Notes under the pieces: model-generated
What the model was told of the DNA's origin: nothing
What the model saw: the letters and a program-made list of their open reading frames with translations, nothing else
The model's database searches: none
Source: JBDROU01 sp043809745 [NCBI: bacterium]
Lineage (GTDB): Bacteria > Elusimicrobiota > JBDRMW01
Reading direction: 5' to 3'
NCBI GenBank assembly: GCA_043809745.1
Contig: JBDROU010000075.1
Coordinates: 1-10,961, forward strand
DNA: 10,961 nucleotides
Shown: piece by piece, positions 140 through 10,770 of the stretch
Layout of the letters: the number at the start of each line of letters is the position of its first letter
How positions within the stretch are numbered: position 1 is the first letter of the stretch
Translations under genes and position numbers: made by a program

Positions 140-263
140 ATTTTAATAAATTTTTCAATAGGTTTTTAATAAAATTTTTAATCATTTTTTGAAATTATAC
201 CCTTTTCATATATAGTGTAACTTAATATGCAGTTTTTAAGCAATAAAAAACCATTATAAATGT

Positions 264-290
264 GTGTCAAATTTGTGATACCTTAGATGT
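264..290 (+). repeat. Intergenic repeat motif, copy 1 (also the start of the long repeat)
   Basis: This is the first of five same-orientation copies of a motif whose consensus is GTGTCAAATTTGTGACAC followed by CTTAGATGCA. Here the arms are GTGTCA (264-269) and TGATAC (276-281), which can pair with one G-U wobble. The motif continues as ATGTAACAAAGG into the 154-nt long repeat. It lies outside any recognised gene. Confidence 0.8.
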
Positions 291-417
291 AACAAAGGAT
301 TATAAACGGTTAAAAAGCGTTAAGAAGGGTAAGGGGGCTATTTGGTTTGGTTATCGTCTGAAAAATCATTTTCCGTCGGAAAGTTGAAGGTCAGTTGTAA
401 GCGTTTTAAGTCCTGTG
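264..417 (+). repeat. Long direct repeat, module 1, left copy
   Basis: This segment aligns without gaps to 5976-6129. By hand I count about 120 identities in 154 positions (about 78%). It begins with the short inverted-repeat motif and ends GTTTTAAGTCCTGTG, which on the minus strand is the anticodon arm of a tRNA-Leu(UAA)-like sequence. Both copies keep one open frame on the plus strand over most of the module (262-387 here), giving a short peptide starting VCQICDTLDVTKDYK with a CxxC pair. Only a GTG could start it here and I see no ribosome binding site, so I do not call it a gene. Confidence 0.8.
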
Positions 418-440
418 CGTCTGCCAGTTCCGACACCCGC
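404..440 (-). pseudogene. tRNA-Leu(UAA)-like 5' half, truncated after the anticodon loop
   Basis: Read on the minus strand from 440, the sequence matches the 5' half of a tRNA-Leu: acceptor strand GCGGGTG, a D-arm with GGAACTGGCAGACGC, an anticodon-stem strand ACAGGA and the loop CTTAAAA with anticodon TAA. The 3' side is missing: instead of the complementary TCCTG the sequence runs into CGCTTACAACTGACC of the long repeat, and no CACCCGC acceptor partner follows in the next 140 nt. It is therefore not a functional tRNA. It may be an attachment-site remnant or a recombination scar. The match rests on recalled tRNA-Leu consensus, not on a covariance model. Confidence 0.5.
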
Positions 441-509
441 CCAATAAAACCTACTTAAAAGATCAAACTTAGATACATAATTACAATTACCAACCTAAAA
501 CCCACAGGA

Positions 510-532
510 ACGGCTTGCCAAAGGCAAGCCGT
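510..532. repeat. Perfect 10-bp hairpin
   Basis: ACGGCTTGCC (510-519), loop AAA, GGCAAGCCGT (523-532) form a perfect 10-bp stem with a 3-nt loop. It is G+C-rich in an AT-rich noncoding stretch and is not followed by a T-run on either strand, so it does not look like an intrinsic terminator. It occurs only in the left long-repeat copy, at the junction with module 2. Confidence 0.7.
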
Positions 533-604
533 GGAGTTTATCCTGAGCTATTAGCAGTTAGCCTGGCCGAAGGGCCACCCGCCTAATATCTTTAATTTGC
601 TTAT
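531..604 (+). repeat. Long direct repeat, module 2, left copy
   Basis: This aligns without gaps to 6188-6261. I count about 57 identities in 74 positions (77%). The shared core is GTGGAGTTTA, then CTGAGCTATTAGC, GCCGAAG, GCCACCC and AATTTGCTTAT. TGGCC-GAAG-GGCCA (564-577) forms a small hairpin here that is lost in the right copy. GGAGTTTATCCTGAGC resembles widespread dispersed repeats of the form CCTGAGCTTGTCGAAGG. Together with module 1 it fills most of the 636-nt gap between the transposase fragment and the P-loop gene; I see no other gene in 110-745. Confidence 0.7.
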
Positions 605-652
605 TATACAATAAGTTTTTAGAAATTGTAAAATACTTTATAAAAACCCTTT

Positions 653-732: not shown

Positions 733-753
733 CACTTTTAATACATTAAAGTG
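733..753 (-). terminator. Weak AT-rich hairpin over the stop of the P-loop gene
   Basis: On the minus strand CACTTT pairs with AAAGTG across the stop codon of the P-loop gene, and AGTTTTC follows. The stem is only 6 bp plus imperfect pairs and the T-run is short. It could be a weak terminator or chance in AT-rich DNA. Confidence 0.25.
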
Positions 754-1465
754 AACCCTGAAGATAACAATTATCCGCTTCAACATCTTGGGATAATATA
801 TTTTCAGTACGTTTGACATCGTTACCCGACTGAATTTGTGAGTTAATAATATTCTCTATTATCATAATAATTCTTTCATACTGAGCCCTAGTCTTTAACG
901 TAAACTTAACATTGATAAGATTGACGCAAAAATCATCAATTGAAAGACCCAAATTCTTCTTCGATGCAATTTCATTGCACACAAAATCGAAATACTGGTC
1001 GAACATAATAATATAATCTAACGGAAACATTTTATCTGACACTGCTATATCATAATCCACATGACCTAACATCCTAGAATTTATTACATTTATATTTGGT
1101 ACTTTCTGTCTGCCAACAAGAAATATTTTATCTGACGAGATCTCCTTAGCCAATGAAACCAGAGCAACAGCAGAAGAAACAATCCTCCAATCAGGATATT
1201 CAATAGCAGCGATACATGAAAATGTTGTTTTGCCTATATTATTATAACCCGATAGCAAAATGACCTTGTCCTTATAAGTTAGCAACTCACCATTATTTCC
1301 CACCCAGCCTATTTCCGGAATTAGCATGAAATCATTCTCACAATCTCTAAGTGATATTCCTAGTTCACTTTTCCCTGGAGGCGCCAGCAAAATATAAGCG
1401 AATGATTCTCCCGAAAAGATATTGCAAGCGATAATTATTAAGATAAAATTAATTATAACTTTCAT
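746..1465 (-). CDS. Unrecognised P-loop protein with an N-terminal hydrophobic segment
   Basis: The protein has 239 residues and I do not recognise its family. Residues 3-19 are strongly hydrophobic and end in SFA, like a signal peptide or membrane anchor. Residues 73-80, GYNNIGKT, after the strand KVILLS, fit a Walker A motif (GxxxxGKT), and LDYIIMFD (149-156) could act as a Walker B strand. The hydrophobic segments are otherwise typical of an a/b fold. No good ribosome binding site precedes the ATG at 1465; a start at Met47 would remove the hydrophobic segment and keep the P-loop, so the start is uncertain. A nucleotide-binding protein with a secretion signal would be odd. The gene is AT-rich like its neighbours, and repeat motifs lie on both sides of it. 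A link to HPr-kinase-like proteins crossed my mind but is not supported. Confidence 0.6.
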   Translation of the reverse strand: MKVIINFILIIIACNIFSGESFAYILLAPPGKSELGISLRDCENDFMLIPEIGWVGNNGELLTYKDKVILLSGYNNIGKTTFSCIAAIEYPDWRIVSSAVALVSLAKEISSDKIFLVGRQKVPNINVINSRMLGHVDYDIAVSDKMFPLDYIIMFDQYFDFVCNEIASKKNLGLSIDDFCVNLINVKFTLKTRAQYERIIMIIENIINSQIQSGNDVKRTENILSQDVEADNCYLQGSL

Positions 1466-1741: not shown

Positions 1742-2731
1742 TTATATAGTAATGCTATTTTTGGGAAGATCTTTTTTCATAGTCAATTTGTTATAGATTT
1801 TCTTTATCTTATTCCAAATACTTTCCTTTTCAAAAAACTCATCAATAAAGGTTGCAACCTGCTCTGTTCGCAAGTAGCCGTATGATTTATGACGATTTTC
1901 CCTACCAGCCATTTCATAATCATTACATACATCCTGGTCTATTACTGATATATAATCACTATTAGGTAAAAATATATTGGCCAGTTGTTGACCCTGGCTC
2001 ACAACATCCAGAGGATCATGCAAATTAATCCAATATCCTTTTATAGCACTCGGCACTAACAATCTTTCGTTATAATGTTGTTTATGCTCTTCGTAAATAT
2101 TATTTTTAATTACCGCATTATTTAGCGGGGCCCCGATGGTAATAAATCCATGAATTTTAATTTCAGGCGGTAACATTGATAACACATCATAAGCAATAAT
2201 TGACCCCATTGAATGTGCGATTAGAAGTATTTCTTTATTTTTATTTTTGATCAGACAATTATATAGCCTTTCCCTAATAATATCTTTTACTTTTTTTCCA
2301 TAGTTTTCTTTTACATTAGATTCTCCTTTATAATATTCATATAAATCCTTAAATTTCTTCTTAATAATTGCGTATGCAACTCTATTAAAATTAAAATACC
2401 TAGTGCGGTTAAAAATTACATTTTCAATTACGTTATATATATTTTTACGCACATATCTTTTAATGGCACCGATTTTCCCCTTACCATTGCACCCCACTCC
2501 TTTAATATATGGGTCATCAATATATAACACATGAGCGCTATTTTTCTCAAAAGGATTTAAAGGTTTCTCATACAGACAATCCGCCCAATATACAAGGGTA
2601 AAATTTAAGAAATATCTTGACCTTCCAATTCTTTTCAATCCCTCTTTAATAGATTTTTTCCACCATTTTTCTAATACAGACTTTGGTGGTTTATTACTCA
2701 ACCCATGTATGCCAATGATGATTTTACTCAT
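1742..2731 (-). CDS. Alpha/beta hydrolase (lipase/esterase-like)
   Basis: The 329-residue protein opens with a beta strand and oxyanion-type turn, IIIGIHGLSN (residues 4-13). The nucleophile elbow LLIAHSMGS (169-177) gives Ser174 in the GxSxG-like setting AHSMG. Downstream lie LHDPLDVV (238-244), with Asp242 or Asp239 as the likely acid, and RENRHKSYG (277-285), with His281 as the likely base, in the order expected for a Ser-Asp-His triad. The fold suggests hydrolysis of an ester, thioester or amide; the substrate is unknown. The lysine- and tyrosine-rich stretch at about 81-165 between the first strand and the elbow is longer than in a minimal hydrolase and may be a lid or insertion. There is no signal peptide, so it is probably cytoplasmic. 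GAGAG lies 5 nt before the ATG. It stands alone between two copies of the intergenic motif. Confidence 0.8.
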   Translation of the reverse strand: MSKIIIGIHGLSNKPPKSVLEKWWKKSIKEGLKRIGRSRYFLNFTLVYWADCLYEKPLNPFEKNSAHVLYIDDPYIKGVGCNGKGKIGAIKRYVRKNIYNVIENVIFNRTRYFNFNRVAYAIIKKKFKDLYEYYKGESNVKENYGKKVKDIIRERLYNCLIKNKNKEILLIAHSMGSIIAYDVLSMLPPEIKIHGFITIGAPLNNAVIKNNIYEEHKQHYNERLLVPSAIKGYWINLHDPLDVVSQGQQLANIFLPNSDYISVIDQDVCNDYEMAGRENRHKSYGYLRTEQVATFIDEFFEKESIWNKIKKIYNKLTMKKDLPKNSITI

Positions 2732-2881: not shown

Positions 2882-3583
2882 TTATCGTTGGAATAATAGA
2901 TATATGCCTGCAGCGAAAACAAGAACTCCGCATAGTTTTTTCAGATATAGTGCTCCACGGGATTGCTCGTTCCAGTTAAGATACTGCTGTACAATTTCAG
3001 TAAATGTACCTGCCAATATAATTACTGAGCAATGTCCTACACCATAAACAGTAAGCAATAATACGCCATAGAGAAATTTCGTTGAAGCAACATTAAATGT
3101 TATGGCAAGCATAGGTGCCATATAAGCGAATGTACAAGGACCTAACGCTATGCCGAAGATAAGCCCCAGCAGAAAAGAAGCAAATATACCTTTCTTTTTT
3201 GCAAACGTATGCTTTGGTTGAGATAATGACGGTATTGGTATAACATCAAAAAGGATCAATCCAACAAGTATAAATACACCCCCTACAAAGTAATTCCCCC
3301 ATGGACCAATATCTCCAAGCATTCTCCCCATTAGTCCGGTAATCACCCCTATCAAAGCAATAGTTATCAATATTCCTATTGAAAAAAGTGTTGAAAGCAA
3401 ACTTGCTCGTTTTGTAGTTATTTTACCCTGACCGTTTATAAAACCTACTATGAGCGGAATACTCGCCAAATGACAAGGACTCAAGAGAATGCTCATAACC
3501 CCCCATATAAAGGCTCCACTTAAGGCAATAATGGGTGTTGACTGCACCGCATTTGTCAACCACTCAAAAACATTAATTATCAT
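2882..3583 (-). CDS. ccdA: CcdA/DsbD-type thiol-disulfide electron-transfer membrane protein
   Basis: The protein has 233 residues and about six membrane segments, the size and layout of the CcdA family (the membrane core of DsbD). Two cysteines sit in the family positions: Cys37 in SPCHLASIPL of the first segment and Cys150 in GPCTFAYMAP of the fourth; each Cys-Pro context is internal to the membrane. Cys185 is an extra cysteine. CcdA takes electrons from cytoplasmic thioredoxin and passes them to an extracytoplasmic CxxC protein. Its ATG overlaps the stop of the thioredoxin lipoprotein gene by 4 nt (ATGA), so the two are probably translationally coupled and the lipoprotein is its likely partner. 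It is the last gene of the ArsR operon. A role in cytochrome c maturation is possible, but no cytochrome gene is nearby. Confidence 0.88.
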   Translation of the reverse strand: MIINVFEWLTNAVQSTPIIALSGAFIWGVMSILLSPCHLASIPLIVGFINGQGKITTKRASLLSTLFSIGILITIALIGVITGLMGRMLGDIGPWGNYFVGGVFILVGLILFDVIPIPSLSQPKHTFAKKKGIFASFLLGLIFGIALGPCTFAYMAPMLAITFNVASTKFLYGVLLLTVYGVGHCSVIILAGTFTEIVQQYLNWNEQSRGALYLKKLCGVLVFAAGIYLLFQR

Positions 3584-4065
3584 TCTTTAAGACCACCTTC
3601 TTTGAGTTTTTCAATGATTTCATCAAGCGGGTAAAATCCTTCGTGCCGAAAATACTCTTTCCCGGATTTATCAAGGAATACCTGCGTAGGGATAAGACGG
3701 ATCTTATACTTTTCAGCATCCCGTCCACCTTCTTTCGTCCAGACATCATGAAAAACAACATCTACCTGTTCGCTATATTTTGTTTCAATTTCGTCAAGTA
3801 TCGGCTTCATCTTCTTACAAGGGATACATTTAACAGAACCTAATTCAACAAGTATCAGTTTCTGGTTCTTTTTAAGTTCATCACTGAAAACTGGAGTTTC
3901 AATATTTGTCTGATTTTTATGAGTTTCCTCTATTTTCTTTGAAGATTTTTGAACAGCCTGCTTTGTCTCTGAACTTATTTTTTCAGAAGGCTGTTGAGCA
4001 CATCCCATACCTGATATCACAAAAAGCCCAAAAATAACAAATATACCTTGTTTCATTTTACACAT
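3580..4065 (-). CDS. Extracytoplasmic thioredoxin-fold protein, probable lipoprotein
   Basis: I place the start at ATG 4065 (161 residues), because GGAGG lies 4 nt upstream (4070-4074). A longer TTG start at 4098 would put that site inside the gene and overlap the preceding gene. The N-terminus is a lysine-flanked hydrophobic signal ending SGMGC, so Cys22 may be lipidated, although the lipobox is not canonical. A charged linker rich in lysine, serine and glutamate follows (about 25-60). The thioredoxin domain holds VKCIPCKKMKP with Cys80 and Cys83, and the cis-proline segment IRLIPTQVF (Pro126). The protein should exchange thiols outside the cytoplasmic membrane, and CcdA, encoded with a 4-nt overlap, should reduce it. 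Whether its target is a metalloid compound, the permease or another protein is unknown. Confidence 0.85.
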   Translation of the reverse strand: MCKMKQGIFVIFGLFVISGMGCAQQPSEKISSETKQAVQKSSKKIEETHKNQTNIETPVFSDELKKNQKLILVELGSVKCIPCKKMKPILDEIETKYSEQVDVVFHDVWTKEGGRDAEKYKIRLIPTQVFLDKSGKEYFRHEGFYPLDEIIEKLKEGGLKE

Positions 4066-4069
4066 ATTA

Positions 4070-4074
4070 CCTCC
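4070..4074 (-). promoter_or_regulatory. Ribosome binding site that sets the start of the thioredoxin lipoprotein
   Basis: On the minus strand GGAGG is followed by TAAT and ATG. It falls between the stop of the preceding gene (4086) and the ATG at 4065, which argues against the longer TTG reading. Confidence 0.8.
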
Positions 4075-4085
4075 AAAACTAATAT

Positions 4086-4316
4086 TTATTTTATCCAACC
4101 AGCAATTTTTTCTTTAGTTGGTATTTTCCCCGCTGATTTAACATTACCATCAATAGCAAGTGCAGGTGTTACCATAACGCCAAAATTCATAATTTCATTG
4201 ATGTTAGTTACTTTTACAATTTCAGATTCAATACCCGCTTCATTAACCGCTTCCTGGACTATTTCAGCAAGTTTTTTGCATTTCGGACAACCCGTACCTA
4301 AAATTTGTATTTTCAT
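4086..4316 (-). CDS. Small CxxC thioredoxin-fold protein (redox-active disulfide protein 2 family)
   Basis: The start chosen is ATG 4316 (76 residues), 6 nt after GGGGAGG (4323-4329); a TTG at 4331 would include that site in the coding region. The sequence begins MKIQILGTGCPKC, with the active-site pair Cys10 and Cys13, and has the cis-proline strand VMVTPALAIDG near residue 52 and a short C-terminal helix. Length and motifs fit the compact thioredoxin/glutaredoxin-like proteins typified by archaeal and Thermotoga TM0996-like proteins. There is no signal, so it acts in the cytoplasm. In many genomes such proteins are encoded beside UPF0718/ArsP permeases, as here. It may deliver or reduce the permease substrate; this is inference from context. 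Confidence 0.85.
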   Translation of the reverse strand: MKIQILGTGCPKCKKLAEIVQEAVNEAGIESEIVKVTNINEIMNFGVMVTPALAIDGNVKSAGKIPTKEKIAGWIK

Positions 4317-4322
4317 TCTATA

Positions 4323-4329
4323 CCTCCCC
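4323..4329 (-). promoter_or_regulatory. Ribosome binding site that sets the start of the small thioredoxin
   Basis: GGGGAGG on the minus strand, 6 nt before ATG 4316. It follows the permease stop (4332-4334) directly. Confidence 0.8.
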
Positions 4330-4331
4330 AA

Positions 4332-5504
4332 TCATTTAACAATCATCCCAAATAATATGCCTGAAAGAGTAGCCATCACTAAAACCAAACTTACATACAT
4401 GGCTGTTTTTTTTGTTCCTATCACACCCCGTATAACCAGCATATTCGGCAAACTTAATGCGGGTCCTGCTAACAGCAGTGCAAGCGCAGGACCTTTACCC
4501 ATTCCAGCCCCTATCAGCCCTTGTAAAATAGGCACTTCTGTAAGCGTAGCGAAATACATGAAAGCACCGACAAAAGAAGCGAAAAAGTTAGCAAACAAAG
4601 AATTCCCACCCACAAGCCCTGCAATAAAGCGGGATGGTATAATACCTTCAGTTCCAGGTCTTCCGAGCAAAAACCCTGCTATCAAAACACCTATGAGTAG
4701 TAACGGCATTATTAGTTTTGCATATGCCCAGGATTCTATCACCCACTCTTTCAGTTCGCCTCTCGTAAACCATAAAATAAGCATACCAACAAGTGCAATG
4801 CAGAAAAAAATGGTTATATACCATTTTGCAGTAAAAACTGCCATCCATATCCCATTATCAGAACTTTGAGGTCTTGCCCAATTCGCAAACACTAAAACAC
4901 TAACCATTGAAAAGAAATAGAGGATATTTTTCCAGAGTAGTTTGCCTTTTTTTTCATCACCCATCACAAGAGGTGTTTCTTCTTGCCTTTTGCTTTCTTC
5001 TTTTAGGAAAAACACTTGCATGAGAAGTCCGATTACGATACTGAAAACTACAGCCCCTACAGCCCGTGCAATTCCTAACTGCCATCCTAATACTTTTGCG
5101 GTTAGTATTACCGCCAGAACATTTATGGCAGGTCCTGAGTACAAAAATACGATTGCTGGTCCCAACCCTGCTCCCCGCTTATAGATGCCTGAAAAAAGAG
5201 GCAGCACAGTACAGGAACAAACTGCAAGTATAGCACCTGACACTGATGCAATACTGTATGCAAGTATTTTATTTGCTTTAGCACCAAAATATTTTATAAC
5301 AGATGCTTGACTTACAAAAACCGATATAGCACCCGCAATAAAGAACGCGGGTATAAGACATAACATCACATGTTCACGCGCATACCACTTTGCTAATGCG
5401 AGTGACTCATAAACGGCATTTTTGAATACATTGATTTCAATCGGAAGATAATAAAATCCAAGAAATACCGAGACAATAAGCAGTAATTTTTTCCATTCTT
5501 TCAT
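4332..5504 (-). CDS. UPF0718/ArsP-type permease, probable metalloid or metal efflux
   Basis: The 390-residue membrane protein has two blocks of hydrophobic segments separated by a charged cytoplasmic loop (about 168-190, KEESKRQEETPLVMGDEKKG), the layout of the DUF318/UPF0718 permease family. The family signature is present: AVCSCTVLPLFSGIYKRGAG with Cys96 and Cys98, then GPAIVFLYSGPAINVLA. A second, related block lies near the C-terminus (FFASFVGAFMYFATLTEVPI, then LLLAGPALSLPNML), suggesting an internal repeat. Members include ArsP, which exports trivalent organoarsenicals, and permeases tied to copper or zinc export, so the substrate is uncertain. GGAGAG precedes the ATG. It lies 49 nt after the arsR gene, and that gap holds a second repressor-type palindrome. 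Confidence 0.85.
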   Translation of the reverse strand: MKEWKKLLLIVSVFLGFYYLPIEINVFKNAVYESLALAKWYAREHVMLCLIPAFFIAGAISVFVSQASVIKYFGAKANKILAYSIASVSGAILAVCSCTVLPLFSGIYKRGAGLGPAIVFLYSGPAINVLAVILTAKVLGWQLGIARAVGAVVFSIVIGLLMQVFFLKEESKRQEETPLVMGDEKKGKLLWKNILYFFSMVSVLVFANWARPQSSDNGIWMAVFTAKWYITIFFCIALVGMLILWFTRGELKEWVIESWAYAKLIMPLLLIGVLIAGFLLGRPGTEGIIPSRFIAGLVGGNSLFANFFASFVGAFMYFATLTEVPILQGLIGAGMGKGPALALLLAGPALSLPNMLVIRGVIGTKKTAMYVSLVLVMATLSGILFGMIVK

Positions 5505-5518
5505 TCGTTACTCTCCAC

Positions 5519-5534
5519 ATAGCATACTTGCTAT
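5519..5534. promoter_or_regulatory. Second ArsR-type operator, between repressor and permease genes
   Basis: ATAGCA-TACT-TGCTAT has the same 6-nt arms and the same 16-nt length as the palindrome in the arsR promoter (5911-5926); only the central four bases differ. It lies 15 nt upstream of the permease start, overlapping its leader. It may tune an internal promoter or act as a roadblock. I see no convincing promoter hexamers beside it. Confidence 0.7.
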
Positions 5535-5553
5535 ATAATTTTGCTAAATTTTT

Positions 5554-5895
5554 TTACTTTCTGCAAAGTCTGTTTCTATCAGCCTTTATTGCCTTTTCCT
5601 TGTCCTTTTTTACTGTCTCATTATCATTCATCCAAGCACTCAGATTTCCCAAAAGTATTTTAACTGTATTATTTCCTTGTCTATTCAGTGAATAATTAGT
5701 CCAGAAACTCTCCTGATAACTTGTGATAAGGCCAGTTTTCCTAAGTTTTGTAAGATGTCGTGATATACTGGGTTGTGCTATGCCTATGATAAAAGCAAGT
5801 TCGCATACACAAAAATCCTTATACTCAAGAAGTTTTAATATCCTAAGTCTGTTTTTATCAGCAAATGCCTTGAATATTTTCTCATACTCCTGCAT
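5554..5895 (-). CDS. arsR: ArsR/SmtB-family metalloid-responsive repressor
   Basis: I choose the ATG at 5895 (113 residues), with GGGAG 8 nt upstream; an ATG at 5910 would add MGVLV but has no ribosome binding site and would leave almost no leader. The protein has the winged-helix layout of the family: EYEKIFKAFADKNRLRILKLL, then CVCEL, then the recognition helix AQPSISRHLTKLRKTGLI and a wing with YSL. The CVC pair (Cys29 and Cys31 from this start) matches the ELCVCDL arsenite-binding site of plasmid ArsR proteins, so binding of As(III), Sb(III) or a similar soft metalloid should release DNA. A lysine-rich C-terminal tail ends LCRK; its cysteine could be a third ligand, as in some methylarsenite sensors. 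It is first in the operon and probably represses itself through the palindrome at 5911-5926. Confidence 0.9.
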   Translation of the reverse strand: MQEYEKIFKAFADKNRLRILKLLEYKDFCVCELAFIIGIAQPSISRHLTKLRKTGLITSYQESFWTNYSLNRQGNNTVKILLGNLSAWMNDNETVKKDKEKAIKADRNRLCRK

Positions 5896-5910
5896 AACCA
5901 GCACTCCCAT

Positions 5911-5926
5911 ATAGCAATATTGCTAT
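5911..5926. promoter_or_regulatory. Perfect 16-bp palindrome, probable ArsR operator
   Basis: ATAGCAATATTGCTAT is its own reverse complement. It begins 4 nt downstream of the -10 box on the minus strand and covers the expected transcription start, so a bound repressor would block initiation. The arms recur at 5519-5534. Confidence 0.85.
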
Positions 5927-5929
5927 TTA

Positions 5930-5958
5930 ATTATACTGCTTCTCAAATAAAATGTCAA
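5930..5958 (-). promoter_or_regulatory. Consensus promoter of the arsR operon
   Basis: On the minus strand TTGACA (5958-5953), a 17-nt spacer and TATAAT (5935-5930) match the housekeeping sigma factor consensus in all twelve bases and in spacing. A start near 5923 gives a leader of about 28 nt to the ATG at 5895. A promoter this strong would need tight repression, which the adjoining palindrome can provide. Confidence 0.9.
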
Positions 5959-5975
5959 TCTCTTATGAAGTATAT

Positions 5976-6003
5976 TTGCCAAATTTGTGACACATTAGAT
6001 GCA
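5976..6003 (+). repeat. Intergenic repeat motif, copy 5
   Basis: TTGCCA (5976-5981), AATTTG, TGACAC (5988-5993), ATTAGATGCA. The left arm has diverged and no longer pairs well. The motif continues into the right copy of the long repeat and lies just upstream of the arsR promoter. Confidence 0.75.
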
Positions 6004-6129
6004 ACAAAGGATTATAAAGCGTTAGAAAGCATTAAGAAGGGCAAACTCAAGCTTCTGTGGTTTTATCATCTGAAAAATCTTTTGTCATCGGAAAGTCAAA
6101 GGTGAGCTGTAAGTGTTTTAAGTCCTGTG
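5976..6129 (+). repeat. Long direct repeat, module 1, right copy
   Basis: Ungapped partner of 264-417, about 78% identical by hand count; the least similar stretch is about 6046-6065. It ends GTTTTAAGTCCTGTG, the same tRNA-Leu anticodon-arm match as in the left copy, but the rest of the tRNA half is interrupted after this point. A plus-strand frame (5965-6105, 46 codons from an ATG, starting MKYICQICDTLDATKDYK) parallels the peptide frame of the left copy; it lacks a visible ribosome binding site, so I do not list it as a gene. Confidence 0.8.
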
Positions 6130-6180
6130 TCCTTCGACCTGGTTCGACTTTGCTCACCACAAGCCGCTCAGGACAGGCCG
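6130..6180. repeat. Dispersed CCTTCGAC/GCTCAGGACAGG-type repeat inserted in the right long repeat
   Basis: CCTTCGACCTGGTTCGAC, GCTCACCACAAG and GCTCAGGACAGG resemble short dispersed repeats of the CCTTCGACAAGCTCAGGAC type known from many environmental bacteria. In the left copy GTCCTGTG runs directly into CGTCTGC; here these two parts (ending 6129, resuming about 6180) are split by about 50 nt, so this looks like an insertion. It is followed by module 2. I see no gene in 5911-6404. Confidence 0.5.
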
Positions 6181-6187
6181 TCTGCTA

Positions 6188-6261
6188 GTGGAGTTTACAC
6201 TGAGCTATTAGCCGTATGAATAGCCGAAGTGCCACCCACCCATCTGTTTGAATTTGCTTAT
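6188..6261 (+). repeat. Long direct repeat, module 2, right copy
   Basis: Ungapped partner of 531-604, about 77% identical by hand count, sharing GTGGAGTTTA, CTGAGCTATTAGC, GCCGAAG, GCCACCC and AATTTGCTTAT. The distance from module 1 is 58 nt here and 113 nt in the left copy. Confidence 0.7.
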
Positions 6262-6358
6262 TTACAACATGTTTTGTAAATAAGTAAATCTATTTTTTAT
6301 GTGTGATAGCAATACAAACACAATATATAAAATATAATGCTAAATATCAACCTTTTTA

Positions 6359-6404: not shown

Positions 6405-9400
6405 TTATTCTTTCGCCGCCTCTAATGCCGCCATCGCATCGTGCACCGCGCGGTGATGCTTTCCGCTTTCAAGCTTCGCCAACAGGCTATACGCGCACGG
6501 CACTACGAACAATGTCAAGACCGTCGAAACAAGCACCCCACCGATCACCACAATAGCCATCGGAATGCGCGTTTCCGCACCCGGCCCCAGCGCTAGCGCC
6601 GGCGGCACAGCGGCCGCGATCGTGGCGACCGAGGTCATAAGAATAGGCCGCAGCCGTATCGGACAAGCATGCATAAGCGCCGCGCGTACGTCCATGCCGC
6701 TTTCCCTGCTGGTATTAGTGAAGTCAACTAACAGGATCGAGTTCTTTTTTACTATGCCCATCAGCAAAATAATCCCTATCATGCTGTAGATATTCAGCGA
6801 CTGCCCGCTGATTGCCAAGGCAAGGAAAGCGCCAGACACGCTGAATGGCAGGGCCAGCAAAACAGTAAACGGATGAACAAAACTGTTGAACTGCACACCC
6901 AACACCATATACGCGACGAATATGCCCAGTAAAAGCGCCACATAAAGGCTTGAGAACGACTCCTTAAATGTCTGAGCGCTGCCGGAAAATTCCACCCGGT
7001 ACCCTTCAGGCAGTATCTCTTTGCTAATAGACTCGATAGCCTGGATCGCTTCGCCCTGCGATTTACCCGGCGTGACATTGGCATACATGCGTATGGCCCG
7101 CTCGCGATTCTTGCGCGTTATGGATAAAAGGGTCGGCTCTTCAACGATACTGACTACTTCCGAAAGCCTGATCACTTCACCTCGGTTATTGCGCACCCAT
7201 ATCGAGCTGATATCCTGCGGGCGGCGTCGGTCTTCTGAAACAAGCTGTACCCGCACATCATATCGCCTGCCGCCCCGCGTGAATTTGCCAGCGCGCACCC
7301 CGCCGATCATGGCGTTGATTGTGTTCCCGATAGAGGCGATGCTAACCCCTCGCTCGGCCGCATTCACGCGATTGGGTACAACTCGCACCTCAGGCATACC
7401 GACATCATAATCTGTATCGACATCAACCATAAGGCCCGATGCTTCCATACGAGAGGTCATCTCGGCGCTCAGGGCTGCAAGCTTGCCCCAATCCGAACCG
7501 CTTAAGGTAAACTCAACCGGGAAACCGCGCCGCGCGGTAAGCCCCATAAGCGACGGGTCCTGCACAACAACGCGCGCGATACCGGCGATGCCATTCAATT
7601 CTTTCCGGAATACAGGCATAAGGTCCTGCTGGCTCAGCGGGCCTTTTGACGCGGGATCAACCGGCCGCTGTGCCGGATCCTTCAAAGTGAGCATCATCAT
7701 GCCGGAATTTGAATTATGCCCCCCACTGATACTGTAGAATGTGTCCACGTTCGGGTCCTTCATAACCTTCTCTTCAACCGTTTTCATAACGGAGCTGGTA
7801 AAGTCAATAGACGAACCCGTCGGCATTTGGAATCGCATCATAAGCCGGCCCTGGTCCTGCGGCGGGATAAACTCCTTTTTCACCAGTTTTAACAGAAGAA
7901 ATGATGCGATAAAAATAAGGAATGAACCGATTAACACTTTCCAGCGGTTATCGAGGCATACACCAAGCAGCGCATTATATTTCACTCTGAGCCAATTCAT
8001 CAGCGAATCCATCGCCCTGCCCAACCACGTGGTATGGCCCAGCTTGAGGAACTGCGCGCAGAACATGGGCGTCAGGGTAAGCGCGCCCAGCAGTGATATC
8101 ATAACCGCGGCCGATATTGTGACTCCAAACTGGAAAAAATACCGACCAATAATCCCCTTCATGAAAATAACCGGCACGAATATGGCAAGAATCGCCACCG
8201 ATGCCGCCACTGCCGCGAATGTAATCTCGCGCGCACCTTTGATCGCGGCGGTAACCTTTGACTCTTTATTCTCACGGTGACGGGCAATATTTTCGAGCAT
8301 CATAATGGCATCGTCAACCACAATGCCAATAACCAGCGACAGTCCCAGCAGAGTAAATGTGTTCAGCGTAAATCCCATCAGGTAGATAATAAAAAACGTG
8401 CCGCATACCGACAACGGAATAGCCAGAAATACATTGAATGCCGAGCTGAACGACCCCAGGAAAAGCCAGCATACCAAACCGGTCAGGGCGATCGATAAAA
8501 TAATAACGAAGTACATTTCGCGCATGGCATCCTTGACAAAGGCCGTCATGTCAAAGCGCATACCCAAACGCATGCCTTCGGGCAAATCTTTCTGGACTTT
8601 TTGCATTCTTTTCTTGACGGCATCAGCAATCGCCACAGCATTGGTGCCGCGCTGTTTGCGAATCCCGATCCCTACGGCAATGCCGTCCTCTGTCCGCGAA
8701 ATCCGGCGTATGTTGGCGAGGCCGTCCTCAATCTCGGCGACATCGCCGATACGGAATATACGCCACAAAGGCGAGCCCTTGCGCGCGGGGATAATAATCG
8801 AGCTGAATTCTTTGGTAGTGCCTGCTTCGCCCACCACCCGGACGTTGAGCTCTTTACTTCCAGTATCGATATAACCAGCGGGAACCTCAACATGCTCGGA
8901 GCTGATCGCCGAAATAAGGTCATCCACGGTAAGCTCACGTTCGCGCATTTTCGCGGCATCAAGCCATACCCGCAAAGCGGGGTCCACAAACCCGCCTAGC
9001 GTGATCTCGCCCACACCCGGCACTGTCGAGAAGATGTCCTTTAAATGATCGCGCGTGTATTCCATAAGGTCTTTAGTGGACCGGTTGCCGGTTAAGGCCA
9101 GCCACAGAATAGGTTGGTCCTCGGGGTTGCTTTTATTAATAACGGGCGGGTCCATATCGCGCGGAAGAAGCCGCTGTGCACGGGCTATTCTACTTTGTAC
9201 TTCCTGCAAAGCGAAATCGATATTCTTGTTCAGATCGAACTGAATAGTTATTCTCGATTCGCCCTGCTGTGAGGTTGATGCTATTTCGGTAACATCCTGA
9301 ATGCCGATGATTGCGTCCTCAAGCACATCGGTAATCTGGGTCTCAATAACCTCAGGGGATGCCCCTTCCCAAGCGCAGGAAACCGACAATACAGGAAAAT

Positions 9401-9521
9401 CAACATCCGGGAGCTGGCTGATGCCCAATCTGAAAAAACCGATAATACCGAAAACGATAATCCCCAGCATGAGCATCCAGGCAAACACCGGATTTTTTAT
9501 AGATGTATCTGAAAGTGACAT
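6405..9521 (-). CDS. RND efflux transporter, HAE1 (AcrB-like) permease subunit
   Basis: I start the protein at ATG 9521 (1038 residues, usual for the family), 9 nt after GGGGG (9531-9535) and 4 nt after the tolC stop; an upstream ATG at 9590 would overlap tolC by 65 nt and add an atypical leader. It begins MSLSDTSIKNPVFAWMLML, the family's first helix, followed by the porter domain start LPDVDFPVLSV. The proton-relay helix LGLSLVIGIVVDDAIMMLEN carries the paired aspartates at about 403-404, and the later helix GIVKKNSILLVDF supplies the conserved lysine. The second half repeats the first. It works as a trimer in the inner membrane, driven by protons, and drives substrates out through an adaptor and a TolC channel. 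Drugs or other amphiphiles are more likely substrates than metal ions because it lacks the CusA methionine pattern. Its base composition is richer in G+C than the arsR block. Confidence 0.93.
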   Translation of the reverse strand: MSLSDTSIKNPVFAWMLMLGIIVFGIIGFFRLGISQLPDVDFPVLSVSCAWEGASPEVIETQITDVLEDAIIGIQDVTEIASTSQQGESRITIQFDLNKNIDFALQEVQSRIARAQRLLPRDMDPPVINKSNPEDQPILWLALTGNRSTKDLMEYTRDHLKDIFSTVPGVGEITLGGFVDPALRVWLDAAKMRERELTVDDLISAISSEHVEVPAGYIDTGSKELNVRVVGEAGTTKEFSSIIIPARKGSPLWRIFRIGDVAEIEDGLANIRRISRTEDGIAVGIGIRKQRGTNAVAIADAVKKRMQKVQKDLPEGMRLGMRFDMTAFVKDAMREMYFVIILSIALTGLVCWLFLGSFSSAFNVFLAIPLSVCGTFFIIYLMGFTLNTFTLLGLSLVIGIVVDDAIMMLENIARHRENKESKVTAAIKGAREITFAAVAASVAILAIFVPVIFMKGIIGRYFFQFGVTISAAVMISLLGALTLTPMFCAQFLKLGHTTWLGRAMDSLMNWLRVKYNALLGVCLDNRWKVLIGSFLIFIASFLLLKLVKKEFIPPQDQGRLMMRFQMPTGSSIDFTSSVMKTVEEKVMKDPNVDTFYSISGGHNSNSGMMMLTLKDPAQRPVDPASKGPLSQQDLMPVFRKELNGIAGIARVVVQDPSLMGLTARRGFPVEFTLSGSDWGKLAALSAEMTSRMEASGLMVDVDTDYDVGMPEVRVVPNRVNAAERGVSIASIGNTINAMIGGVRAGKFTRGGRRYDVRVQLVSEDRRRPQDISSIWVRNNRGEVIRLSEVVSIVEEPTLLSITRKNRERAIRMYANVTPGKSQGEAIQAIESISKEILPEGYRVEFSGSAQTFKESFSSLYVALLLGIFVAYMVLGVQFNSFVHPFTVLLALPFSVSGAFLALAISGQSLNIYSMIGIILLMGIVKKNSILLVDFTNTSRESGMDVRAALMHACPIRLRPILMTSVATIAAAVPPALALGPGAETRIPMAIVVIGGVLVSTVLTLFVVPCAYSLLAKLESGKHHRAVHDAMAALEAAKE

Positions 9522-9525
9522 ACTA

Positions 9526-10770
9526 TTATTCCCCCGTGATAATATCCAGTAAAATTTTATTACGCTGCGCGTCAAGCCGCGCGCTGTCAAACCGTTGTTT
9601 TACATCAAGCAGCTGCCGCATTACATCAAGAACTTCCAGATTATTCACCAGCCCCAGACTATACTCCCTTAACTGCGCTTTATAGCTTTGCGTGGTTTTA
9701 TCATAGGCCAGGCCGTACTCGCGAGATTGTTCAAGCGACGACACAAAAGCGTGATAGGCAACCCGCGTTTCAGTAATGGCTTCGCGCTGCGCGTAAGAAA
9801 GCGCCAGTTCGGCCTCGCGTAATTTTGAGCTGTTTTCTTTGACTAACGCTGCGGTTTGGCCGCCCTGGGAAATCGGCATATCAAGCGAAAACACCACATC
9901 CCAGTCATTCCTCAGTGTTTTTGTATCGCGTTCGAGATACCGCGAAGCATTCAAATCAATTGCGGGCAGAAAATCGCCCCGCGCTGCTCTCAAGCGCATC
10001 TGCGCTACCAATACAGCTTCCTGAAGCGCCAGAATATCAGGCCTGTGGGAAACTTTAGCGGCATAGGCCTCCAAAGACTCCGCTGATTCTGGCACAGCCG
10101 CGTCATCGGCAAACACCGCCGATCCCATATCCGTACCTACTATAAAGGAAAGCCGTTCGCGTGCGATTGCCGCATCGCCCGTATTCTTCGCCAGCTGAGA
10201 TCGCAAGGTAGCTATACTCGATTCAATCAACAGCGCCTCGCTCGGGCGAGATTTGCCGAGCTCTATTCTTTTCTTGAGCTCGTTTAACCGGGTATTCCAG
10301 ACGGCAAAAGCCTCTTCGGTATTCTTCTTCTCATACTCGTTCTGCAAAACGGAAAAATATGCGACGGCCACGTCTTGCCTAAGCGCGCGCAAATATTCCT
10401 GATAGATTAGTTGGGCGCTTCGCTGGCTGCCGGAAGCAATTTTAAGCGCGTTATATTTTTTGAACCCATCGAATAACGGCTGGGTAGCGGTCAGTTTGGT
10501 TTCGGATGTTTCGCGGGCAAGGTCGCCCGCAGCCGAATCCTGAAAAGTTTTGCGATAGCGGAAATACACATCCGGCAGCACCGTGCCCCGCGCCTGATGC
10601 AGCTGCTGGAGCGCCTGCAATGTATGCTCGGCCGAAATGCGCGCCTGTTCATTATTGGCTTGCGCGAGGTTAAAACATTGCTGAATAGTAATGGTATTAA
10701 TCACCGGCTCAGCGCAAAGCATTGCCCCTGAAAATGCAAACGTTAGTCCCCAGTATAATTTATAGTTCAC
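9526..10770 (-). CDS. TolC-family outer-membrane efflux channel
   Basis: The 414-residue protein begins with a GTG at 10770 and a signal peptide ending AMLCA. It shows the two-fold repeat of the family: ARGTVLPDVYFRY then TATQPLFDGFKK in the first half, ARGDFLPAIDLNA then SLDMPISQGGQTA in the second. Each is followed by long alanine-, glutamate- and leucine-rich helices of the periplasmic barrel. Length is normal. It would trimerise in the outer membrane and form the exit duct for the RND pump encoded 4 nt downstream. No ribosome binding site precedes the GTG (upstream bases ATACTCC), and the promoter -10 box ends only 8 nt before it, so the message may be leaderless. The next in-frame Met (residue 17) would destroy the signal peptide. 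Confidence 0.9.
   Translation of the reverse strand: MNYKLYWGLTFAFSGAMLCAEPVINTITIQQCFNLAQANNEQARISAEHTLQALQQLHQARGTVLPDVYFRYRKTFQDSAAGDLARETSETKLTATQPLFDGFKKYNALKIASGSQRSAQLIYQEYLRALRQDVAVAYFSVLQNEYEKKNTEEAFAVWNTRLNELKKRIELGKSRPSEALLIESSIATLRSQLAKNTGDAAIARERLSFIVGTDMGSAVFADDAAVPESAESLEAYAAKVSHRPDILALQEAVLVAQMRLRAARGDFLPAIDLNASRYLERDTKTLRNDWDVVFSLDMPISQGGQTAALVKENSSKLREAELALSYAQREAITETRVAYHAFVSSLEQSREYGLAYDKTTQSYKAQLREYSLGLVNNLEVLDVMRQLLDVKQRFDSARLDAQRNKILLDIITGE

What the first reader, a model, noticed from the sequence alone, without database searches (positions are those of the whole stretch)
2882..5895. Metalloid-type efflux operon with a built-in transmembrane thiol relay
One operon encodes a CxC ArsR sensor, an ArsP/UPF0718 permease, a cytoplasmic CxxC protein, an extracytoplasmic CxxC lipoprotein and CcdA. 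The last two genes overlap by ATGA, as expected for partners. The arrangement suggests electrons from the cytoplasm are delivered outside the membrane to act on the exported compound or to keep permease cysteines reduced. Permease plus small thioredoxin is a known pairing; the added CcdA-lipoprotein branch makes a two-sided redox system whose chemistry is not obvious.
Basis: partly seen in the sequence, partly recalled or inferred. Interest (0 to 1): 0.65.

Follow-up and report, generated by a model that had tools for sequence, protein, structure and literature searches.

The report
Arsenic operon with membrane-crossing thiol relay
A bacterial arsenic-export operon carries its own pair of proteins that probably passes electrons through the membrane to a thioredoxin outside; the layout is a variant of a known arsenic gene set, and it suggests that one protein now named an arsenic exporter may really be an electron carrier.

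Summary
In detail: window 2882-5910 (minus strand) is one operon of arsR, ArsP-type permease, small thioredoxin, exported thioredoxin and CcdA. The two-sided design is not new, though; it is a variant of the known permease + ArsE + ArsF + ArsG layout. The small thioredoxin passes the curated ArsE cut-off; the last two proteins hold the ArsF and ArsG places but miss those models. Of 80 related permease loci, 51 carry ArsF+ArsG and 6 the window-type pair. The window-type CcdA is a separate clade found in ars neighbourhoods (64 of 75 loci within 1.5 kb; 0 of 23 ordinary CcdA/DsbD paralogues). Its two conduit cysteines and the thioredoxin CxxC are conserved, three loci fuse the two proteins, and the permease tree rejects a single origin of the pair. 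Best reading: an arsenic-inducible thiol relay, from cytoplasm to outside, beside an As(III) or organoarsenical exporter. What the outer thioredoxin reduces is unknown. ArsG, named an efflux permease, may be an electron conduit too. Side result, tentative: the permease model resembles ArsB. New variant of a known kind.

The parts
5911..5958 (-). Promoter TTGACA-17-TATAAT (5958-5930) followed by palindrome ATAGCAATATTGCTAT (5911-5926), probable ArsR operator 1
   Evidence: 12 of 12 match; 2 sites in window, 0 of 200 shuffles with 2; role inferred
5554..5910 (-). arsR: ArsR/SmtB repressor with CVC; likely start 5895
   Evidence: CxC conservation
5519..5534 (.). Palindrome ATAGCATACTTGCTAT, probable second ArsR operator in front of the permease gene
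   Evidence: role inferred
4332..5504 (-). ArsP_1 (PF03773) permease, 390 aa; invariant Cys49, Cys96, Cys98; carries the published ArsP cluster-1 motifs
4086..4331 (-). Small cytoplasmic thioredoxin of the MTH895/ArsE family, CPKC; likely start 4316
3580..4065 (-). Exported, probably membrane-tethered (possibly lipoprotein) thioredoxin, CIPC; holds the ArsF place but gives no ArsF hit
2882..3583 (-). CcdA/DsbD_TM protein of the ars-associated type; redox cysteines Cys37 and Cys150; starts inside the stop of the thioredoxin gene (ATGA)

Best explanation
An arsenic-inducible detoxification operon of the ArsP + ArsEFG layout, in which the usual ArsF-ArsG pair is replaced by an exported thioredoxin and an ars-dedicated CcdA. 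Shown from sequence: gene content and order, conserved cysteines, ars neighbourhoods in several phyla, more than one exchange between the two kinds of pair. Inferred: ArsR releases the promoter when As(III) or an organoarsenical binds its CxC; the permease, perhaps an ArsB-like elevator with a CSC motif at its substrate site, exports the trivalent arsenical; CcdA takes electrons from a cytoplasmic thioredoxin (ArsE or TrxA) through Cys37/Cys150 and hands them to the tethered thioredoxin outside. There it most likely reduces envelope thiols or arsenic-thiol adducts hit by the exported metalloid, or the exported (organo)arsenical itself. By the same logic ArsG is probably an electron conduit rather than, or as well as, an exporter.
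For: Window small thioredoxin passes MTH895/ArsE. In related loci the same places hold ArsF (111.9 bits, cut-off 60) and ArsG (276.5, cut-off 200), with ArsM in 34 of 80 and Acr3 in 37 of 80; one or two representatives of each were checked against curated models (ArsM 365.3, cut-off 263; Acr3 406.7, cut-off 282.8). Of 80 permease loci 75 have the ArsE-type thioredoxin, 51 ArsF+ArsG, 6 the window-type pair, 0 both pairs. Window-type CcdA: 64 of 75 loci have an ars marker within 1.5 kb (55 of 75 counting only permease, ArsE-type thioredoxin, Acr3 or ArsM) and 65 of 75 an adjacent thioredoxin or ArsF; 71 of 75 a marker within 6 kb; control 0 of 23 ordinary paralogues from the same genomes within 1.5 kb. 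Cys37 81 of 83, Cys150 83 of 83; ArsG both Cys 51 of 51, ArsF CxxC 52 of 52, window-type thioredoxin CxxC 8 of 8, ArsE-type CxxC 74 of 74. Thioredoxin-CcdA fusions in 3 of 82 loci, each beside an ArsF-profile hit. First Foldseek match of the CcdA model is the electron transporter CcdA 5vkv. AU test rejects one origin of the pair on the permease tree (p 9.6e-6 for 7 strict rows).
Against: No experiment on this set; the substrate is inferred from neighbours. In the window itself only arsR, permease and the ArsE-type thioredoxin point to arsenic; no arsC, arsM or acr3 was found among the nine window proteins scanned. The permease also scores 111.7 and 111.4 bits with the Cu/Zn exporter SO_0444 and SaoE models, both far under their cut-offs. 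Support for the CcdA fold is modest (Foldseek E 0.025, TM 0.50) and 5vkv does not stand out in VIA-align (Z 6.1). The second ArsG cysteine is one residue off the CcdA position, so equivalence is likely, not shown. ArsF also occurs together with the window-type pair or fusion in 6 of 82 loci, so the two pairs are not strict alternatives everywhere. Twelve of 70 loci have the permease and neither pair.
Confidence: 0.6

Rival explanations
1. The CcdA-type protein is a second arsenical exporter, as the ArsG family name says (aromatic aminobenzylarsenical efflux permease), and the exported thioredoxin helps it.
For: NCBIfam names ArsG an efflux permease; PMC9144182 (passages) lists ArsG among efflux transporters and cites the 2019 ArsEFG paper among its references (that paper is not held and was not read).
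Against: Two conduit-type cysteines are kept in ArsG (51 of 51) and in window-type CcdA (Cys150 83 of 83, Cys37 81 of 83), with a CxxC partner; three thioredoxin-CcdA fusions in 82 loci; an ArsP-type permease is already in these operons.
Confidence: 0.15
2. The outer thioredoxin keeps the permease cysteines reduced.
For: Permease Cys49, Cys96, Cys98 invariant in 81 of 81; co-occurrence of permease and a relay of either kind.
Against: The model (pLDDT 75) puts Cys96/98 at a hairpin tip in mid-membrane, which by my topology reading enters from the cytoplasm; 12 of 70 loci have the permease with neither pair; window-type CcdA also occurs beside an RND pump with no ArsP seen nearby.
Confidence: 0.1
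3. Ordinary CcdA for cytochrome c maturation or disulfide repair that happens to sit here.
For: The protein is a DsbD_TM member.
Against: Window-type CcdA is its own clade (25 of 25 sampled rows, support 100); of 25 genomes searched with PF02683, 23 gave a locus of an ordinary paralogue, and 0 of those 23 had ars markers within 1.5 kb against 64 of 75.
Confidence: 0.06
4. Same machine, but for another thiophilic metal or organometal (Hg, Cu/Zn) rather than arsenic.
For: Permease scores 111.7 bits with the SO_0444 Cu/Zn exporter and 111.4 with SaoE.
Against: Both far under cut-offs 300 and 325; neighbours in relatives include arsM, acr3 and arsC.
Confidence: 0.07

Closest known systems
ArsEFG gene set (NCBIfam TIGR00412 MTH895/ArsE, NF040494 ArsF, NF040495 ArsG) beside a permease, e.g. 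Prevotella nigrescens plasmid NZ_CP072340
   Same: Thioredoxin family protein, ArsF, ArsG, permease, winged-helix regulator, ArsC and ACR3 in one cluster as annotated
   Different: Window lacks ArsF and ArsG proper: its thioredoxin gives no ArsF hit and its CcdA scores 51.5 bits against a cut-off of 200
CcdA + thioredoxin + redox-active disulfide protein 2 in ars operons (PMC2963123, 2010, passages read)
   Same: Same three kinds of protein in ars operons; transmembrane electron flow considered
   Different: They report 8 instances in 7 organisms, 7 with arsC, propose a link to ArsC and call transmembrane flow less likely; no split into two lineages in the passages I read
ArsP cluster 1 permeases (PMC4435449, passages read)
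   Same: C(S/T)C, LAV before it, and Hv(L/I)xClvPAfFIAG; window has LAVCSC and HVMLCLIPAFFIAG
   Different: No difference in these motifs; substrate of this branch untested
DsbD / CcdA-thioredoxin electron relays
   Same: Two membrane cysteines plus extracytoplasmic CxxC thioredoxin; the two are fused in 3 of 82 loci
   Different: Dedicated ars lineage; Cys185 in 72 and Cys218 in 73 of 83 rows, seen in 0 of 23 ordinary paralogues and 0 of 20 ArsG sampled
RND pump + thioredoxin + CcdA of Sulfuricella denitrificans plasmid pSCD
   Same: CcdA 57% identical to the window's, thioredoxin gene overlapping it by four bases, arsC and arsenite methyltransferase upstream
   Different: No ArsP-type permease in the stretch read; the pump directly before the pair is RND

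Membership tests
ArsEFG system | ArsE-family small thioredoxin over curated cut-off | tested here: met
   106.6 bits, cut-off 62
ArsEFG system | ArsF over curated cut-off (60) | tested here: not met
   No ArsF hit for the window's exported thioredoxin
ArsEFG system | ArsG over curated cut-off (200) | tested here: not met
   51.5 bits; separate clade from ArsG, supports 100 and 99 on sampled rows
ArsEFG system | Reduction of nitrophenylarsenicals and export of aminobenzylarsenicals | not testable with these tools
   Known here only from NCBIfam names and the title of the 2019 paper, which is not held
ArsP permease, cluster 1 | C(S/T)C with LAV before it and HvLxClvPAfFIAG motif (PMC4435449) | tested here: met
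   Window LAVCSC and HVMLCLIPAFFIAG; Cys49/96/98 in 81 of 81
ArsP permease, cluster 1 | Export of organoarsenicals | not testable with these tools
   No assay
CcdA/DsbD_TM electron conduit | DsbD_TM over gathering score and the two redox cysteines | tested here: met
   55.5 bits, cut-off 27.1; Cys37 and Cys150 aligned with those of ordinary paralogues, 22 and 23 of 23
CcdA/DsbD_TM electron conduit | CcdA fold | tested here: inconclusive
   Foldseek best 5vkv, probability 1.00 but E 0.025, TM 0.50; VIA Z 6.1, rmsd 5.1, 185 aligned, not above other rows
ArsR/SmtB metalloregulator | HTH_metalloreg over cut-off and CxC | tested here: met
   77.9 bits, cut-off 55; CVC at the conserved place, first Cys 31 of 34, second 28 of 34 rows
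ArsB / IT-superfamily fold (permease) | Two inverted repeats, each a hairpin and a broken helix, with cytoplasmic linker | tested here: inconclusive
   Model pLDDT 75, helix order fits; top VIA match ArsB 10tp Z 14.5, rmsd 5.5, 337 aligned, but the tool warns that helical models often reach such Z; Foldseek gave no match with E under 0.001

The most novel reading that the evidence does not exclude
ArsFG and the window-type thioredoxin-CcdA pair are two exchangeable forms of one arsenic-dedicated transmembrane reductase; ArsG is an electron conduit and not an exporter, its natural job in anoxic groundwater and sediment bacteria is older than synthetic nitroarsenicals, and the ArsP-type permease beside it is an ArsB-fold elevator in which cysteines replace the polar As(OH)3 ligands.
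Probability: 0.33. Interest if true: 0.68.

Novelty: new variant of a known kind. Interest (0 to 1): 0.45.

Why it matters
It gives a natural exchange experiment: two separate DsbD_TM lineages fill the same place in arsenic operons. That makes a testable case against the current name of ArsG as an efflux permease, and points to an unexplained need for reducing power outside the membrane during arsenic export. It also describes an ars-dedicated CcdA lineage that falls far under the cut-off of the ArsG model, and a possible fold relation (ArsP-type permease to ArsB) at odds with the published placing of ArsP in the TOG superfamily (PMC7176098, passages read).

Tried and rejected
Whole-genome context of the window: none held. 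The exported thioredoxin as query in viral contigs: 7 pattern matches, none a relative. Literature on Sao organometal systems: the 20 papers listed of 77 were unrelated. The 2019 ArsEFG paper is not held. Further searches for ArsE/ArsF/ArsG, ArsEFG and CcdA with ars operon (listings, of which one search showed 20 of 110) turned up the 2010 paper and a few papers that name ArsEFG; in the two looked into for it the name stood in the reference list only. That the two-lineage split is not in print rests on these searches of open-access papers only.

A second cysteine pair (Cys185/Cys218) in window-type CcdA was considered as a redox or metal site. The two are mostly lost one at a time (64 rows with both, 17 with only one, 2 with neither or missing), so pairing is not supported. 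Loss of permease Cys17 together with the exchange of the pair: 6 of 10 window-type rows keep it against 47 of 51 ArsFG rows, but losses occur in both kinds and in distant rows, so I make nothing of it. A common ArsR operator across relatives: the palindrome was found in only 2 of the 23 other loci with arsR next to the permease. A close tie of the window's RND pump to the Sulfuricella RND that stands before thioredoxin-CcdA: only 23% identity. PHROGs gave nothing for the two unnamed flanking genes. PDB sequence searches with CcdA and permease found nothing. VIA-align did not set the CcdA structure apart.

Weak points of the counts. Of the 88 loci L084-L171, 75 score at least 200 bits with the window CcdA and were counted; 11 score less (7 of these have ars markers; the other 4, L091-L094, came with the seed genomes and have none) and 2 gave no CcdA hit. 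Five of the 75 (L084-L088) were first found through the permease; without them 59 of 70 have an ars marker within 1.5 kb and 66 of 70 within 6 kb. The markers are my own profiles, either strand; ArsR and ArsC profiles may catch general relatives, hence the stricter 55 of 75. Two of the seven added at 6 kb (L174, L175) rest on an ArsE-like thioredoxin alone. Of the four left, one has an RND pump and adaptor (L172), two are cut by contig ends (L176, L177), one has nothing (L182). The control was scored at 1.5 kb only. Six of the 36 Spirochaetota hits came without a locus and were not examined. The genome tallies include the seed genomes G001, G002, G004, G005 and G007. The permease survey uses the best 80 of 220 relatives, so it says nothing of distant ArsP. 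L080 has its pair 3 kb from the permease, not in the same place. The row counts leave out ORFs of 70 aa or less. The DsbD_TM tree used 25 of 83 window-type and 20 of 51 ArsG rows and warns of long branches.


Full report
What is there. The minus strand of 2882-5910 codes for five proteins in one run: ArsR (5554-5910), an ArsP_1 permease (4332-5504), a small thioredoxin (4086-4331), an exported thioredoxin (3580-4065) and CcdA (2882-3583). Gaps are under 50 bases, and the last two genes overlap by ATGA. A perfect sigma-70-type promoter stands in front of arsR, with a palindrome ATAGCA-N4-TGCTAT at 5911-5926; a second copy lies 14 bases before the permease gene. Two copies in the window were matched by 0 of 200 shuffles. 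That ArsR binds them is an inference. The motif recurs beside arsR in only 2 of 23 related loci, so it is not a clade-wide operator.

The known layout. The permease found 220 relatives in the genome collection, of which the best 80 were kept, mostly Omnitrophota. I built profiles from the window and from neighbouring genes and mapped them on the 80 loci. The commonest operon is permease, ArsE-type thioredoxin, ArsF and ArsG, with ArsM in 34 and Acr3 in 37 of 80. Representatives were checked against curated models: ArsF 111.9 bits (cut-off 60), ArsG 276.5 (200), ArsE 105.2 (62), Acr3 406.7 (282.8), ArsM 365.3 and 342.9 (263). Counts: ArsE-type thioredoxin 75 of 80, ArsF+ArsG 51, window-type thioredoxin + CcdA 6, only part of the window type 3, none of these 20, some of them cut by contig ends. 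A fourth partial case, L045, also has ArsF+ArsG and is counted there. With at least 1.5 kb downstream: 69, 49, 6, 3 and 12 of 70. A Prevotella plasmid carries a winged-helix regulator, ArsF, ArsG, thioredoxin, permease, ArsC and ACR3 as annotated. So the coupled design is a known one.

The variant. In the window and a few relatives the ArsF-ArsG place is taken by another exported thioredoxin and another DsbD_TM protein. The window CcdA scores 51.5 bits with the ArsG model (cut-off 200) and its thioredoxin gives no ArsF hit. In a tree of 68 DsbD_TM proteins the window type (25 rows) and ArsG (20 rows) are each one clade, supports 100 and 99 (a sample of 83 and 51). On the permease tree the loci with the window-type pair do not form one clade (AU p 4.7e-39 for 10 rows including partial cases; 9.6e-6 for the 7 strict rows and 1.1e-4 for 5 rows). 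The two kinds of pair have therefore changed places more than once, or the operons were reassembled by gene transfer.

Is the window-type CcdA truly an arsenic gene? I searched samples of five phyla with a profile of seven members (E up to 1e-50): hits in 5 of 384 genomes of the phylum of L061 (Omnitrophota), 24 of 395 (that of L080, Thermodesulfobacteriota), 36 of 198 (that of L075, Spirochaetota), 8 of 199 (that of L068, Planctomycetota) and 12 of 35 (that of L011, Ratteibacteria) (seed genomes included). Of 75 loci with at least 200 bits to the window protein, 64 have an ars marker within 1.5 kb (55 by the stricter set) and 65 a thioredoxin or ArsF directly beside it; with 6 kb, 71 of 75. 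Without five seeds that came from the permease search the marker figures are 59 and 66 of 70. As a control, ordinary DsbD/CcdA paralogues from the same genomes were fetched with PF02683: 0 of 23 have an ars marker within 1.5 kb. This is a dedicated lineage.

Does it look like an electron relay? The two membrane cysteines stand in 81 of 83 (Cys37) and 83 of 83 (Cys150) rows and align with those of ordinary paralogues (22 and 23 of 23). ArsG keeps two cysteines in 51 of 51, the second one residue away from the CcdA position. The partner CxxC is kept in 52 of 52 ArsF, 8 of 8 window-type thioredoxins and 74 of 74 ArsE-type thioredoxins. In 3 of 82 loci thioredoxin and CcdA are one protein, each beside an ArsF-profile hit (the one checked against NCBIfam, L112, scored 68.6 bits with a cut-off of 60). 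ArsF-profile hits occur in 6 of 82 window-type loci, so ArsF may also work with this CcdA. A model of the window CcdA (pLDDT 82) finds the electron transporter CcdA 5vkv first in Foldseek (probability 1.00, E 0.025, TM 0.50), though VIA-align does not set it apart (Z 6.1). Electron transfer is inferred, not shown.

The permease. Its three invariant cysteines, Cys49, Cys96 and Cys98 (81 of 81), and the motifs HVMLCLIPAFFIAG and LAVCSC match ArsP cluster 1 of a 2015 survey (PMC4435449, passages read). The model (pLDDT 75) shows two repeats, each with a hairpin and a broken helix, joined by a charged linker. The best structural match is ArsB of Leptospirillum ferriphilum (10tp, Z 14.5, rmsd 5.5, 337 aligned), followed mostly by dicarboxylate, sulfate and phosphate carriers of the kind that the ArsB paper counts in the IT superfamily. 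The tool warns that helical models can reach such Z without kinship, and Foldseek alone gave nothing under E 0.001, so this stays tentative. The ArsB paper (PMC13381914, passages read) puts As(OH)3 between hairpin and loop motifs, held mainly by Asn and Ser. The CSC motif falls at the first hairpin tip, which suggests a thiolate form of the same site. A 2020 paper places ArsP in the TOG superfamily (PMC7176098, passages read); the model speaks for ArsB instead.

Mechanism. Shown: gene content, conserved cysteines, dedicated lineage, exchange, fusion. Inferred: arsenic lifts ArsR; the permease exports a trivalent (organo)arsenical; CcdA moves electrons outward to the tethered thioredoxin. What is reduced outside is open: envelope disulfides and arsenic-thiol adducts, or the exported compound. 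The nitrophenyl reduction named in the ArsF family title can hardly be the native role in uncultured anoxic lineages if such arsenicals are only man-made (recalled, not tested here). The cysteines of the permease are a less likely target.

Verdict. The new points are the unnamed ars-dedicated thioredoxin-CcdA lineage, its repeated exchange with ArsFG, the doubt this throws on ArsG as an exporter, and the ArsB-like permease model.

Noticed in passing
window 6405-10770, minus strand: An RND pump and a TolC-type outer membrane protein lie upstream of the operon on the same strand, with G+C of 47-56% against 35-41% over the operon. No adaptor is visible before the window ends.
   Followed up: partly
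window 260-605, 650-688, 1670-1708, 2826-2864, 5972-6262: An interspersed repeat with the core TGTCAAATTTGTGACACCTTAGATGC occurs five times; in two places (260-605 and 5972-6262) further matching pieces extend it to about 300 bases, and copies flank the arsenic operon on both sides. Possibly a mobile or repeat element.
   Followed up: no
window 1742-2731, minus strand: Alpha/beta hydrolase-like protein (LCAT and PGAP1 Pfam hits), probably a lipase or esterase; no sign of a link to the operon.
   Followed up: no
window 746-1465, minus strand: 239-aa protein with a signal-like N terminus and no Pfam, NCBIfam or PHROGs hit.
   Followed up: no
L112, L114, L159: Thioredoxin fused to window-type CcdA beside an ArsF-profile hit: a DsbD-like fusion in an arsenic setting.
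   Followed up: partly
45 of the 80 permease loci, e.g. L003:5690-6001: A DUF134 helix-turn-helix protein stands near the permease in 45 of 80 loci (one confirmed in Pfam), mostly where no arsR was found; it may be an alternative arsenic regulator.
   Followed up: no
L122 and L140 (radical SAM-like protein beside window-type CcdA); L109 (nitroreductase-like protein downstream): Possible further partners of window-type CcdA, named by eye from the printed sequences; L108, L110, L111 and L113 have a gene of similar length in the place of the L109 one that I did not read.
   Followed up: no
L014:9282-9689, L125, L126: A cysteine-rich protein of about 136-172 codons recurs between the ArsE-type thioredoxin and ArsF or the exported thioredoxin; no NCBIfam hit for the L014 one.
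   Followed up: no
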